DNA of 64,000 nt, taken from NCBI RefSeq assembly GCF_009930795.1, contig NZ_CP017146.1, positions 744,001 to 808,000 of the forward strand, read 5' to 3'. A model generated the notes under the pieces. The model was not told the origin of the DNA and searched no databases. It worked only from the letters and a program-made list of their open reading frames with translations. This DNA is from Marisediminicola antarctica (GTDB taxonomy: Bacteria > Actinomycetota > Actinomycetes > Actinomycetales > Microbacteriaceae). The position numbers and the translations under genes were made by a program. Positions 10,198-16,458 of this stretch are shown in pieces; positions within the stretch are counted from its first letter, which is position 1; every line of letters starts with the position of its first letter.

Positions 10198-11733
10198 ATG
10201 GACCAGCGCGATACCCCCTACGCCGACGCCATGCGCGCGTATGCGACATCGCATCCGGCCCGCTTCCACCTGCCCGGACACGGCGGCTCCGGCGACAGCC
10301 TCGGCGACTACTTCGGCGAGCGGATGCTGTCGCTCGACCTCATGCCGATGATGCACGGCATCGACATGGGCGTCACGCCCACCCCGCTGGAACGGTCGCT
10401 GCGGCTCGCCGCAGAGGCGTGGGGCGCGCGGCGCAGCTGGTTCCTCGCGAACGGTGCCAGCCAGGGCAACCAGATCGCCGCCCTCGCGATCGCGGGGCTT
10501 CGCCCCGGCGGCCAGATGCTCGTACAGCGGTCGGTGCATTCGTCGGTCGTCGACGCGCTCGTGCTCACCGGAGGCTCAGCCCGCTTCGTCGCGCCCGTCG
10601 TCGTCGACGGGATGGCGCACGGGCTTGTCGCAGCAGATGTCGCGGCGGCGATCGGTGCTGCCGGTGCTGCCGCCGAGGGGGGCGCTACGATCGGCGCTGC
10701 CGGTGCTGCCGGTGCTGCCGGTGCTGCCGGTGCTGCCGGTGCTGCCGGCGCTGCCGCCCTGTCGTGCGTCTACGTCGTGAGCCCGAGCTACTTTGGCTTC
10801 GTCTCCGACATTGCCGCGCTCGCCGGTGTCGCCCACGCGGCCGGGCTGCCCCTCGTCGTCGACGAGGCGTGGGGCGCCCACCTCGGATTCCACCCCTCGC
10901 TGCCACAGAACGCCCTGCGCCAGGGTGCCGACCTCGTCGTGTCGTCGACACACAAACTCGGCGGATCGCTGACCCAGTCGGCGATGCTGCACCTCGGACA
11001 CGGCCCGTTCGCCGACGAACTCGAGGCGCAGGTCGACCGCGCGCGGAGCATCGTGCAGAGCACAAGCGAGAGCAACCTGCTGCTCGCCTCGCTCGACCTC
11101 GCCCGCTGCCGACTCGCGACGGGCGCCTCACAGATCGGCGACGCGCTCGACATCGCGGAGGCCCTTCGCGATCGGGTGCGCTCGGGAGGGCGGTTCGGTA
11201 TCGCCTCCGACGGATTCTCGCTCGTGCCGGGTTGTGGGGGTGTCGACCCGTTCCGTATCCCAATCGACACCCGGGTGGGAGGCATCACCGGGCACCGGGC
11301 GCGCACGATTCTTGCCGAGGAACACGGCATCCTCGTCGAGATGGCGACGGACGCCGGAATCGTCGCACTCTTCGCGGCATCCGCGGCCCCGTCGATCGAC
11401 GGACTCGTCGCCGCTCTTCACGCGCTGCCGGTCGACCCGCCCGCGCGCCGCGAGTCGCCGATGCCGCCGCTTCCGCCGTGGGGCAGAGCGCGGATGACCG
11501 TGCGCGACGCCTTCTTCGCGCCGAACGAGATCGTGGCCGCCGCGGATGCCGTGGGGCGCGTCGCCGCCGACTCCCTCGCCGCGTACCCGCCCGGCATCCC
11601 GAACATCATGCCGGGGGAGGAGGTCACCCGTGAGCTCGTCGACTTCGTGCAGGCGGTGGCGTCGGCCGAGTTCGGGCACGTGCGCGGCGCCATCGATGCG
11701 GGCGTGCGGCGGATGCGGGTGGTGGCGCGGTAG
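10198..11733 (+). CDS. PLP-dependent Orn/Lys/Arg decarboxylase-family protein
   Basis: 511 residues of the aspartate-aminotransferase-fold Orn/Lys/Arg decarboxylase group I family. Visible are FHLPGHGG near the start, DLMPMMHGIDMG, FLANGASQGNQIAAL (phosphate-binding turn), PLVVDEAWGAHLGFHP (DEAWGAH, PLP-binding Asp) and VVSSTHKLGGSLTQSAMLHLG (Schiff-base lysine in STHK). The C-terminal domain ends SAEFGHVRGAIDAG. Between the strand SARFVAPVV and CVYVVSPSYFGF there is an alanine/glycine insertion coded by 9-bp tandem repeats. The substrate (lysine, arginine or other) cannot be decided. The gene is monocistronic. Confidence 0.9.
   Translation: MDQRDTPYADAMRAYATSHPARFHLPGHGGSGDSLGDYFGERMLSLDLMPMMHGIDMGVTPTPLERSLRLAAEAWGARRSWFLANGASQGNQIAALAIAGLRPGGQMLVQRSVHSSVVDALVLTGGSARFVAPVVVDGMAHGLVAADVAAAIGAAGAAAEGGATIGAAGAAGAAGAAGAAGAAGAAALSCVYVVSPSYFGFVSDIAALAGVAHAAGLPLVVDEAWGAHLGFHPSLPQNALRQGADLVVSSTHKLGGSLTQSAMLHLGHGPFADELEAQVDRARSIVQSTSESNLLLASLDLARCRLATGASQIGDALDIAEALRDRVRSGGRFGIASDGFSLVPGCGGVDPFRIPIDTRVGGITGHRARTILAEEHGILVEMATDAGIVALFAASAAPSIDGLVAALHALPVDPPARRESPMPPLPPWGRARMTVRDAFFAPNEIVAAADAVGRVAADSLAAYPPGIPNIMPGEEVTRELVDFVQAVASAEFGHVRGAIDAGVRRMRVVAR
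10693..10755 (+). repeat. 9-bp in-frame minisatellite (GGYGCTGCC x7)
   Basis: Seven contiguous units, five of them exactly GGTGCTGCC, encode Gly-Ala-Ala repeats inside the PLP decarboxylase. Units are multiples of three, so copy-number change would alter loop length without breaking the frame. Confidence 0.9.
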
Positions 11734-11741
11734 CGCGCGGT

Positions 11742-11850
11742 GCCTGCGCTCGCGCGCGGTGCCCGCGCCTGCGCCTGCGCCTGTGCTCGCGCTCGCGCTC
11801 GCGCCTGCGCCTGCGCCTGCGCCCGCGCCCGCGCCTGCGCGCGCGCGGTT
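11742..11850. repeat. GCGCCT/GCGCTC hexamer low-complexity tract
   Basis: More than 100 bp of degenerate hexamers (GCGCCTGCGCCTG, GCGCTCGCGCTCG) fill the gap between the convergent decarboxylase and uracil permease genes. No coding signal is seen. Confidence 0.8.
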
Positions 11851-13398: not shown

Positions 13399-13788
13399 TC
13401 AGCCGCTCGTGCGGGTCTCGCGCGCGTTCGCCTTCTGCAGCGCGTCGACGAGCTCCGACTTGTTCATCGAGGAGCGTCCCTTCACATCGAGTCGTCTCGC
13501 AAGATCCATCAGATGTTCCTTCGAGGCGTTCGCATCCACCCCTCCCTTGGTCTGGCCCGTTCCGCGCGGGCCAGCGGCTCCGGAGTCGGACGGCCCCGAC
13601 TCGGCCTTCCTCTCCCAGTGGTCGCCGACCTTCTCGTACTCGCGCTTGAGCGCGGCGAAGGCGGTGCGGTGGGCTCGCTCGCCCTCCCCGTAGCTGTCAA
13701 CAGCCGAGTCGTGCGCCTTCGACCAGAGCGACTGGGCATGCGTGTCCGACCGGCGGAGCGTGTCGGGCATCTCGTCCGATGCGGGCAT
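13399..13788 (-). CDS. ChaB-like protein with a C-terminal Rho-N/SAP-like motif
   Basis: 129 residues, starting at ATG 13788 behind an AAGGAG ribosome binding site; a longer open frame upstream is the shadow of the CPBP gene. Residues 1-60 match the ChaB fold (MPDTLRRSDTHAQSLWSKAHDSAVDSY, then RAHRTAFAALKREYEKVGDHW). The last 40 residues, SKEHLMDLARRLDVKGRSSMNKSELVDALQKAN, are a Rho-N/SAP-type helix-extended-helix motif known to bind nucleic acid. The role of this common actinobacterial pairing is not established. Confidence 0.82.
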   Translation of the reverse strand: MPASDEMPDTLRRSDTHAQSLWSKAHDSAVDSYGEGERAHRTAFAALKREYEKVGDHWERKAESGPSDSGAAGPRGTGQTKGGVDANASKEHLMDLARRLDVKGRSSMNKSELVDALQKANARETRTSG

Positions 13789-13874
13789 CTCGAACTCCTT
13801 ATCTCTCGATTTTCCCGGGCCGCGAAGCTCGGCCAGGCCCGCAAGCGAGGAGCCTAGCCCTTCAGCAGCGACGA

Positions 13875-14690: not shown

Positions 14691-14824
14691 GTGTCAAGCA
14701 TGCCAGCACCCGGCCGGGAATACTCCGACGATTCCCGCCATCGGCTGGTGTTCCCAGAAAGCCGCGGCCGCAAACTGAGGGAACAGCGCCTCCGGGAGGT
14801 GCACAACACGCGTAGGGTTTTGGT

Positions 14825-15664
14825 GTGATCGACGAATGTATCCATGGACTTGACCGGGACCGCTGCGACGCCTGCAGCCCCACGGCGCCCCCCACGCCAG
14901 CCTCCGCAAAACCGCCCGTCAAACGGGCCGCAGCACGAACCACGACCAGCCTCCGCACCACCCCGAGCAGCCTGAGGGCTCCTGCCACGAAGTCCCCCGC
15001 GGCCAGACGGGCAGCAGCCGCCGCCCCAGCCAAGCCCGTGCCGAGCCTCGGGGAGCAGCGCATCTACCACGTGACCCACGCGAGCAACCTCCCCGGCATC
15101 CTGGACAGCGGCGCGCTGAACGCCGAGACGAGCCCGGTCACCGATATCTCCTCGGAGGAAGCCCGCACCGCCCGGCGCGCGACGACCGTCGCAGGCCCGG
15201 ACAGCGCAACCGTCGCCGAGCACGTGCCGTTCTACCTCTCGCCCAACGCGAGGCTCTGGGAGTCGATGCGCGCGGGATCCACGGACCCTCGCCTCGCGCC
15301 GTCAGCCCATGGCCTCGCCGCCGCTGAGTTCGTCATCCTCGTGAGCACCGTGAAGACCGTCGCGACCGATGAGGCATCCATCGTCGTGACCGACGGCGAC
15401 GCGACCGGACAGCTCACCCGGTTCGCCGCGACGGACGAGACCTGGAAGCGGTTGCTGTACCGGCTGATTTCCGACGACGAATCCGATGCGCTGCTGAGCG
15501 CCGAGTTCCTGGTCAAGGACTCGGTTCCGTTCGACGCGGTGACCCTCATCGGCGTACCGCACGACCGGGCCCGGGATGCCGTGAAGCTGGCGCTCGCGGG
15601 CTCGTCGCACGTGCCGCGCGTCGCGGTGCACCCGCCGTGGTTCGCGGTGCCGACCGAGGACTGA
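14825..15664 (+). CDS. DarT-like DNA ADP-ribosyltransferase (DUF4433), orphan
   Basis: 279 residues from GTG 14825. Residues 1-20 contain a small putative metal site, CIHGLDRDRCDAC (C-x-H-x7-C-x2-C), followed by a 50-residue Ala/Pro/Thr/Arg linker. The catalytic domain begins at about residue 77 with RIYHVTHASNLPGIL (DarT NAD-binding start). EHVPFYLSPNARLW matches the VPFYFxPRxP motif, and LLSAEFLVKDSVPFDAVTLIGV carries the catalytic Glu (residue 227). DarT enzymes ADP-ribosylate thymidine in single-stranded DNA and are normally neutralised by a neighbouring DarG macrodomain protein. None is present here; the next gene is an SDR remnant. Confidence 0.78.
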   Translation: MIDECIHGLDRDRCDACSPTAPPTPASAKPPVKRAAARTTTSLRTTPSSLRAPATKSPAARRAAAAAPAKPVPSLGEQRIYHVTHASNLPGILDSGALNAETSPVTDISSEEARTARRATTVAGPDSATVAEHVPFYLSPNARLWESMRAGSTDPRLAPSAHGLAAAEFVILVSTVKTVATDEASIVVTDGDATGQLTRFAATDETWKRLLYRLISDDESDALLSAEFLVKDSVPFDAVTLIGVPHDRARDAVKLALAGSSHVPRVAVHPPWFAVPTED

Positions 15665-15693: not shown

Positions 15694-16458
15694 TCAGGCC
15701 CGAGCCGACCGCCGCGGGATCAAGCGCGTGCGAGACGGTGCCTCCGAAGCGGTGCGCATCGCCGAGAGCATCCGAGGCAGGATCACGGCCGCGGTGCCGA
15801 CGAGCACCGACCAGCCAATGAACCCGCGCGCGAGTTCGCGATTCTTGCCGTTCCAGCCGCCGTCCACCCGCCGTCCACCCGCTGCTCGTCGGCGGGGGCC
15901 GGCTCAAACAGGGTGCCGTCGGTCACCGGCACCCCGCGCCGCGGCGAGAGGTGGGTCTTCTCGACCAGCGCGGCCATCTGCGCCTCGATCGCCTGCGGGG
16001 TGCGTCGGTGCTGGCGCGCCATTGCCCGGCCGGCCCGGCCGCTCCGACCGGATGCTTGCCCCGAGTGACCGGATCGCGGCCCTCGAGCCATAGACGCAGC
16101 CCATCAGGTTGACGTCGAGGACGCGACGGAAGTCCTCAAGCGGCACCTCGAGAAACGAGGCGAAGAGCGTCGTTCCGGCGTTGTTGACCCACACGTCGAT
16201 GCGTTCGAATGCCTCAACGGCGGCGGCAGCGGCGGCAGCCAGGGCTTGCACATCGGTGAAGCCGGCGACCTCGGTCGGCACGGCGATCGCCCGGCCGCCC
16301 AGGTTCTCCCACTCCCGCACGAGCCCGATGAGGGCCTCGTCGCTGCGACTGGCAAGCACGAGACTCGCCTCCTTTTTAGCGAAACGGAGGGCGGTCGCGC
16401 GCCCGATTCCGCTCGATGCGCCGGTGATCACGACGACGGGATCCTTTCTCTTCGACAC
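15694..16458 (-). pseudogene. Decayed short-chain dehydrogenase/reductase (SDR) gene
   Basis: The N-terminus is intact: VVVITGASSGIGRATALRFA (TGxxxGIG NAD(P) site), VNNAGTTLFASF (NNAG) and DFRRVLDVNLMGCVYGSRAA. The catalytic Ser-Tyr-Lys segment is missing. Reading jumps from GSRAA to IRSLGASIRSE and then, in another frame, to ARQHRRTPQAIEAQMAALVEKTHLS, pieces that normally sit far apart in this SDR subfamily. Near the end an 11-bp tandem duplication (15859-15880) shifts the frame. Removing one copy joins DGTLFEPAPADEQRVDGGW to NGKNRELARGFIGWSVL, the usual C-terminal membrane anchor, ending at 15694. I infer two internal deletions plus one duplication; a functional enzyme is very unlikely. Confidence 0.8.
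15859..15880. repeat. 11-bp tandem duplication causing a frameshift
   Basis: Two exact copies of GCCGTCCACCC sit side by side within the SDR remnant. Deleting one copy restores the reading frame between the GGW motif and the C-terminal anchor, so the duplication is itself an inactivating lesion. Confidence 0.9.

What the first reader, a model, noticed from the sequence alone, without database searches (positions are those of the whole stretch)
14825..15664. DarT-like toxin domain with a zinc-type N-terminus and no DarG
Seen: the DarT core including the catalytic Glu is preserved, but it is preceded by a C-x-H-x7-C-x2-C motif and long linker, and no macrodomain gene is next to it. Either an antitoxin is encoded elsewhere, the N-terminal module regulates the toxin in cis, or the activity differs (for example guanine or RNA modification).
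Basis: partly seen in the sequence, partly recalled or inferred. Interest (0 to 1): 0.55.

Follow-up and report, generated by a model that had tools for sequence, protein, structure and literature searches.

The report
Antitoxin-less DarT-like enzyme with zinc tag
This gene encodes a relative of a bacterial DNA-modifying toxin that one family of soil and plant bacteria carries as an ordinary chromosomal gene without its antidote, with an added zinc-binding tip and an altered target pocket, so it probably modifies something other than the toxin's known target.

Summary
A 279-aa ORF (GTG start) carries C5-x-H7-x6-C14-x2-C17 (spacing six, not seven), a 57-aa basic linker and a DarT domain (Pfam 87.6 bits; Z 24.5 to Thermus DarT). 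No macrodomain, NADAR or ARH family is detected anywhere in the complete genome. It is not a stray gene. The motif occurs in 148 of 299 Microbacteriaceae genomes, all-or-none in 59 of 63 genera sampled at least twice. All 149 hits were read: 145 of 148 distinct proteins have the DarT domain. No neighbour is conserved, no macrodomain is adjacent in 33 of 33 genomes checked, and the domain is under purifying selection. NAD-side residues are kept (H13, R51 and E160 equivalents in 144, 143 and 145 of 145). The base-locking residue, His or Asn in all 18 canonical DarTs compared, is Asp in 131 of 145 and His in none; M78 and H65 equivalents are also replaced. Best reading: a vertically inherited stand-alone DarT-fold ADP-ribosyltransferase with a changed acceptor, not a DarTG toxin. 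The zinc tip looks like a portable module: it also heads unrelated proteins and persists in one genus where the catalytic core is deleted. Substrate and activity are untested.

The parts
14825..15664 (+). zinc-DarT gene: 279-aa stand-alone DarT-fold ADP-ribosyltransferase
   Evidence: ORF; Pfam/PADLOC; fold
14837..14875 (+). putative zinc knuckle C5-I-H7-G-L-D-R-D-R-C14-D-A-C17 (ligands 14837-14839, 14843-14845, 14864-14866, 14873-14875)
   Evidence: coordinates; invariant in A1, A2 and the 122-protein set; metal binding inferred from the motif, not shown
14882..15052 (+). 57-aa linker, 10 Lys/Arg and no Asp/Glu, with two SLRx(1-2)P motifs at residues 42-44 and 49-51; predicted disordered (38-55 pLDDT under 50)
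15053..15646 (+). DarT-fold ADP-ribosyltransferase domain (residues 77-274)
   Evidence: Pfam match 81-273; pLDDT 90-97 in the blocks from residue 71 to 270; Z 24.5 to 7omv
15068..15070 (+). H82, equivalent of Thermus DarT H13 (NAD adenosine ribose)
   Evidence: alignment; role from PMC9967889 passages
15173..15175 (+). R117, equivalent of catalytic R51
15398..15400 (+). D192, at the position of base-locking H119 (DarT2) / N104 (DarT1): His or Asn in canonical DarTs, Asp here
   Evidence: roles
15503..15505 (+). E227, equivalent of catalytic E160 (DarT2) / E152 (DarT1)
14813..14818 (+). TAGGGT, starting 12 bases before the GTG start: likely -10 element of a leaderless promoter
   Evidence: TANNNT peaks at -12 in 21 of 181 distinct upstream regions; not an experimental promoter

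Best explanation
It is a stand-alone, vertically inherited chromosomal ADP-ribosyltransferase of the DarT fold, specific to Microbacteriaceae. SHOWN by sequence: the DarT fold and NAD-side residues, family-wide conservation, purifying selection, no linked partner, a changed base-recognition position, and an invariant Cys-His-Cys-Cys N-terminus on a basic linker. INFERRED: the domain still binds and cleaves NAD+; it places ADP-ribose on an acceptor other than the ssDNA thymine or guanine of DarT2/DarT1, chosen by the altered pocket (Asp for His/Asn); the zinc knuckle and basic linker dock the enzyme to its target (a nucleic acid or nucleic-acid-bound protein) rather than serving as an antitoxin; restraint comes from low expression (mostly GTG/TTG starts), narrow specificity or a conditional trigger, so no DarG-type partner is needed.
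For: Fold: pLDDT 90-97 over the ART domain; Z 24.5, rmsd 2.6 over 196 residues to Thermus DarT; 23.8 to M. tuberculosis DarT; 14.6 to DarT1; 8.3 to tRNA 2'-phosphotransferase. One branch (100/100, 71 rows) apart from 18 canonical DarTs. Motif in 148 of 299 family genomes, reversed-pattern control 1 of 299; 59 of 63 multiply sampled genera all-or-none. No relative in viral contigs; plasmids and phages give only canonical DarTs. No neighbour family shared by more than 6 of 31 loci. Macro adjacent in 0 of 33 zinc-DarT genomes against 14 of 19 other actinobacterial DarT genomes and in all 5 plasmid/phage loci opened. Of 145 ART-bearing proteins: H82 144, R117 143, E227 145; D192-position D 131, E 4, Y 3, N 3, P 2, V 1, A 1, H 0, against N 12 and H 6 in 18 canonical. 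dN/dS of the ART domain 0.04-0.26 in 19 distinct close pairs.
Against: No biochemistry. M78 and Y71 equivalents are also mostly lost, and a DarT1 M71A mutant is inactive, so catalysis could be weak or absent. Two relatives lost R117 (L182, L183), one lost H82 (L059), and one genus deleted the core, so activity is dispensable in places. M. tuberculosis DarT has Asn at the base position (read from the alignment), so the acceptor cannot be read from this one residue. A missed or unknown antitoxin cannot be excluded.
Confidence: 0.55

Rival explanations
1. It is a true DarT-type DNA toxin held in check in cis by the zinc N-terminus, or by an unlinked or unknown antitoxin; released under stress or phage attack.
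For: DarT fold and catalytic Arg/Glu kept; PADLOC calls it DarT; DarTG is a phage-defence and growth-control system in print (search listings and abstracts); non-ATG starts in 165 of 181 distinct upstream regions suggest low expression; 17 of 33 genomes have a Macro gene somewhere.
Against: 16 of 33 genomes, the complete own one included, have no Macro hit and none of 33 has NADAR. Presence is genus-stable, unlike a mobile toxin module. Base-locking residue replaced in nearly the whole lineage. Zinc module also sits on non-ART proteins.
Confidence: 0.2
2. It is a degenerate pseudo-enzyme that binds NAD+ or nucleic acid but no longer transfers ADP-ribose; the zinc module and C-terminal tail carry the function.
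For: Loss of M78, Y71 and H65 equivalents; genus g19 (L169, L170) keeps the zinc N-terminus and C-terminal tail with the core deleted.
Against: Catalytic Glu in 145 of 145 and Arg in 143 of 145 despite pairwise identities to the window protein down to 32% in A1, and dN/dS well under 1 in the ART domain, which fits retained catalysis.
Confidence: 0.15
3. It is a single-gene anti-phage effector that modifies phage nucleic acid on a zinc-module trigger.
For: DarT relatives defend against phages (search listings); the best solved relatives are DNA-acting.
Against: Ordinary neighbours, not a defence island; genus-stable inheritance is unusual for defence genes; no phage-borne copies found.
Confidence: 0.1

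Closest known systems
DarT2 of DarTG2 (Thermus sp. 2.9 DarT, PDB 7omv/7omy; M. tuberculosis DarT, 7yk3)
   Same: Fold (Z 24.5 and 23.8), H13, T15, N19, R51 and E160 equivalents
   Different: No linked DarG; H119 position Asp, M78 and H65 replaced, Y71 mostly Phe/Ser in the lineage; zinc N-terminus and basic linker added; separate 100/100 branch
DarT1 of DarTG1 / DarT-NADAR (E. coli C7 DarT1, PDB 8baq)
   Same: ART fold (Z 14.6), catalytic Arg and Glu
   Different: More distant in fold; DarT1 uses N104 on guanine; no NADAR in any of the 33 zinc-DarT genomes
PF22531 DUF7002
   Same: Weak match at residues 79-146 (E 0.022, below cut-off; 6 of 31 A1 members at E up to 1)
   Different: Not significant; DarT scores 87.6 bits over the same region and beyond
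tRNA 2'-phosphotransferase Tpt1/KptA
   Same: Distant ART-like core (Z up to 8.3)
   Different: Far below DarT matches; only part of the domain aligned

Membership tests
DarT fold family (PF14487) | Match over the Pfam cut-off and DarT fold | tested here: met
   87.6 bits against 22.5; Z 24.5
DarT fold family (PF14487) | Catalytic Arg (R51) and Glu (E160) | tested here: met
   R117, E227; 143 and 145 of 145 relatives
toxin DarT equivalog (NCBIfam NF048013) | Score over the equivalog cut-off of 150 bits | tested here: not met
   90.7 bits
DarT2 (thymine-specific) | Base-locking residue at the H119 position (His or Asn in all 18 canonical proteins compared here) | tested here: not met
   D192; D in 131 of 145, H in 0 of 145
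DarT2 (thymine-specific) | M78 that stabilises the oxocarbenium ion | tested here: not met
   L144; M in 5 of 148 rows against 16 of 18 canonical
DarTG2 toxin-antitoxin system | Adjacent macrodomain antitoxin DarG | tested here: not met
   0 of 33 genomes adjacent; none in own genome
DarT1-NADAR (DarTG1) system | NADAR partner | tested here: not met
   0 of 33 genomes. Caution: PF08719 missed the NADAR-like neighbour seen by eye at L051
DarT toxin | Toxicity of the unpartnered protein and ssDNA base ADP-ribosylation | not testable with these tools
   Needs expression and assay
Zinc-binding protein | Bound Zn through C5, H7, C14, C17 | not testable with these tools
   Ligand pattern invariant in A1; no solved or Pfam relative of the 23-residue module found

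The most novel reading that the evidence does not exclude
A whole bacterial family uses a domesticated DarT as a normal, partnerless writer of a new ADP-ribose mark (on RNA, a different DNA base or a DNA/RNA-bound protein), addressed by a portable Cys-His-Cys-Cys module, with no known eraser in many of the species.
Probability: 0.3. Interest if true: 0.75.

Novelty: new variant of a known kind. Interest (0 to 1): 0.5.

Why it matters
DarT is known as a toxin that is lethal or growth-arresting without its antidote. A DarT-fold enzyme that a bacterial family has kept through genus-level descent without any recognisable antidote would show that this chemistry has been turned into ordinary physiology. 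It would also break the habit of calling every DarT hit a toxin or a defence gene: PADLOC's DarT profile matches this protein. The Asp-for-His/Asn change gives a direct, cheap test of how DarT enzymes choose their target.

Tried and rejected
Unlinked DarG: rejected as a general answer. NADAR eraser: none. ARH eraser: none in own genome; present in 5 of the 16 Macro-less genomes. Mobile toxin: no copies in viral contigs; plasmid and phage hits are canonical DarTs at under 60% identity. Operon partner: no conserved neighbour. The zinc module as a known family: no Pfam, NCBIfam, PHROGs or PDB hit for the module or its other carriers, and no plasmid relative of L260 (one irrelevant PHROGs hit at E 0.34). 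The motif as an actinobacterium-wide family marker: without its leading Glu it is at background outside the family (17 of 396 genomes, three of them in the own family; the reversed control is of the same order), with L306 a likely true exception. Fold rows below DarT and Tpt1 (other ARTs, Z about 5-6) were not pursued. Print: searches of the held open-access library listed no paper on a zinc-bearing or partnerless Microbacteriaceae DarT; nine were run, judged on listings, abstracts and passages only; subscription papers are mostly not held.

Limits: the SLR count (55 of 119 proteins against a shuffle mean of 0.7, maximum 3; 3 of the 122 proteins were left out because the domain start was not recognised by the script) is not corrected for relatedness. 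dN/dS is by the Nei-Gojobori method, 20 printed rows of 25 pairs, one of them the window pair repeated. Start codons were taken as the nearest candidate upstream of the motif. PF08719 missed a NADAR-like neighbour at L051, so NADAR absence is weaker than Macro absence. The 122- and 148-protein sets were chosen by the zinc motif, so they cannot by themselves show that all DarTs of the family carry it; (31 of 31 same-family DarT hits) do. The tree used 71 of the zinc proteins then in hand.

Full report
OBSERVATION. The ORF at 14825-15664 (+) is real: 279 aa, GTG start. Residues 81-273 match Pfam DarT at 87.6 bits, cut-off 22.5; PADLOC DarT gives 101.5 bits; the NCBIfam toxin-DarT equivalog gives 90.7, below its cut-off of 150. 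phmmer finds M. tuberculosis and Thermus DarT among solved structures (entry titles). The genome is one contig, 3.35 Mb, with a single DarT hit, no Macro hit, no NADAR hit, no ARH hit and a single match to the DNA form of the motif.

A FAMILY, NOT A STRAY GENE. Of 99 related genomes, 32 have a DarT hit: 31 of the 60 in the same family (own included) and 1 of 39 others. All 31 same-family proteins begin with the zinc motif; the outsider (L051) does not and looks like DarT1 with a NADAR-like neighbour (by eye). In genome contigs, 172 relatives were found and 80 kept; 77 of the 80 titles name Microbacteriaceae or genera I recall as belonging there, and three are MAGs with broader titles. The stricter motif E-C-x-H-G-x5-C-x2-C-x-P occurs in 148 of 299 family genomes, once each except G640 (two), with one reversed-pattern match. 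Of 63 genera sampled at least twice, 30 have it in every genome, 29 in none and 4 are mixed. That is descent with lineage loss. Viral contigs gave no relative; plasmids gave 8 and phages 1, all under 60% identity, covering about 64-71% of the query and not the N-terminus.

NO PARTNER. Pooling ORFs of 32 loci (the window among them; L051 has no zinc-DarT), the largest neighbour family reached 6 of the 31 zinc-DarT loci. In the window the flanks are a Rce1-like membrane protease gene on the minus strand and a broken short-chain dehydrogenase on the minus strand, then EI24, alpha/beta hydrolase and permease genes: no defence island. Macro domains: 0 of 33 zinc-DarT genomes have one within 10 kb of the gene, 17 have one somewhere, 16 have none. 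As a control, 14 of 19 other actinobacterial DarT genomes have Macro next to DarT (13 clear, G113 weak; two of the five without are at contig edges or truncated), and all five plasmid or phage DarT loci I opened (of nine hits) have a macrodomain gene next door (in the phage record it is annotated as an ADP-ribose phosphatase-related protein). NADAR: 0 of 33. ARH: 5 of the 16 Macro-less genomes. Streptomyces SCO6735-type macrodomains remove thymine-ADP-ribose and are common in Actinobacteria (PMC9411070, passages), so a trans-acting eraser is conceivable in the 17, not in the own genome as far as PF01661 can see.

ACTIVE SITE. Published roles (PMC9967889 and PMC11543638, passages only): H13/T15/N19 hold NAD; Y71 stacks on nicotinamide; R51 and E160 are needed for catalysis; M78 stabilises the intermediate; H119 locks the thymine (N104 the guanine in DarT1). 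I aligned all 149 motif hits, 148 distinct proteins, with 18 canonical DarTs. Three of the 148 lack the ART domain. Of the other 145, the H13 position is His in 144, R51 Arg in 143 and E160 Glu in 145. The H119 position is Asp in 131, Glu 4, Tyr 3, Asn 3, Pro 2, Val 1, Ala 1, His 0; the canonical set has Asn 12, His 6. The M78 position is Met in 5 of 148 rows (16 of 18 canonical); Y71 is Tyr in 16, Phe in 66, Ser in 29; H65 is mostly Ala (108). The neighbouring residue W145 is Trp in 145 of 148 rows and Leu/Met/His in the canonical set. So the NAD side is kept and the acceptor side is remodelled the same way in nearly the whole lineage. Asp can pair with amino/imino edges of guanine, adenine or cytosine or act as a base for an OH or NH acceptor (general chemistry; inference).

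STRUCTURE, TREE, SELECTION. AlphaFold2 on A2 (79 rows) gives pLDDT 85.9, 90-97 in the ART domain, under 50 in residues 38-55 and 74-83 over the zinc block. Best solved matches are all DarT. In an 89-row tree the 71 zinc rows and 18 canonical rows fall on two sides of one branch, 100/100 (bootstrap not settled, canonical rows of unlike composition). dN/dS in the ART domain is 0.04-0.26 over 19 distinct close pairs; the zinc block has almost no amino-acid change.

THE ZINC MODULE. It is at the very N-terminus (start codon 2-4 codons before the Glu in 180 of 181 distinct upstream regions). It is kept in L169 and L170 (two species of one genus) whose proteins of 148 and 151 aa have lost the R117 and E227 region and carry Leu at H82. 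It heads a different 127-aa protein in G640 (L260), a relative of it in G589 whose frame is broken (L309), and another protein in an actinobacterium of another family (L306). It is therefore best read as a portable targeting module, which weakens the cis-antitoxin idea. The linker carries SLRx(1-2)P in 55 of 119 proteins (shuffles: mean 0.7, maximum 3), a possible docking or phosphorylation site. The window gene has TAGGGT at -12; TANNNT peaks sharply there in 21 of 181 upstream regions, and start codons are GTG 97, TTG 68, ATG 16, which fits an autonomous, weakly translated gene.

VERDICT. It is a DarT-fold family member but not a DarTG system member. It probably works like an ADP-ribosyltransferase with another acceptor. 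Activity, metal and target are untested here. I found no paper on it in nine searches of the held library (18, 47, 48, 49, 77, 78, 91, 92, 93); 'DUF4433' occurs in 8 papers there, of which I opened one (PMC5179494, passages). PMC10482375 (one passage) lists DarTG among systems enriched in Actinobacteria; whether zinc-DarT contributes to such counts I did not test.

Noticed in passing
L169:1495-1938 and L170:1101-1553: In genus g19 the same gene has lost the ART core but keeps the zinc N-terminus and the C-terminal tail in frame: a natural catalytic-core deletion.
   Followed up: partly
L260 (G640), L309 (G589), L306 (G134): The same E-C-x-H-G-x5-C-x2-C N-terminus heads other proteins without a DarT domain; the domain in L260 has no Pfam, NCBIfam or PHROGs match. 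The frame of L309 is broken.
   Followed up: partly
window 14882-15052: Two SLRx(1-2)P motifs in the disordered linker; the motif is in 55 of 119 relatives.
   Followed up: partly
window 14813-14824: Likely leaderless promoter (TAGGGT at -12); GTG/TTG start codons in 165 of 181 distinct relatives' upstream regions.
   Followed up: partly
window 15783-16458: Short-chain dehydrogenase on the minus strand loses its frame after about residue 130; a possible C-terminal remnant lies in another frame at 15783-16091. Looks like a pseudogene.
   Followed up: no
window 10692-10756: Nine-base tandem repeat (7.2 copies) coding Gly-Ala repeats inside an Orn/Lys/Arg decarboxylase gene.
   Followed up: no
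window 11742-11840: GC-rich 6/12/36-base tandem repeat between the decarboxylase and a uracil/xanthine permease gene.
   Followed up: no
window 13399-13797: Small protein joining a ChaB domain and a Rho_N domain.
   Followed up: no
L051:5190-6627: DarT1-like gene beside a NADAR-like gene that the Pfam NADAR profile does not report in that genome.
   Followed up: no
L167:2471-4227 (Thermus phage phiMa): A phage-borne DarT/macrodomain pair whose DarT is annotated as a hypothetical protein.
   Followed up: no
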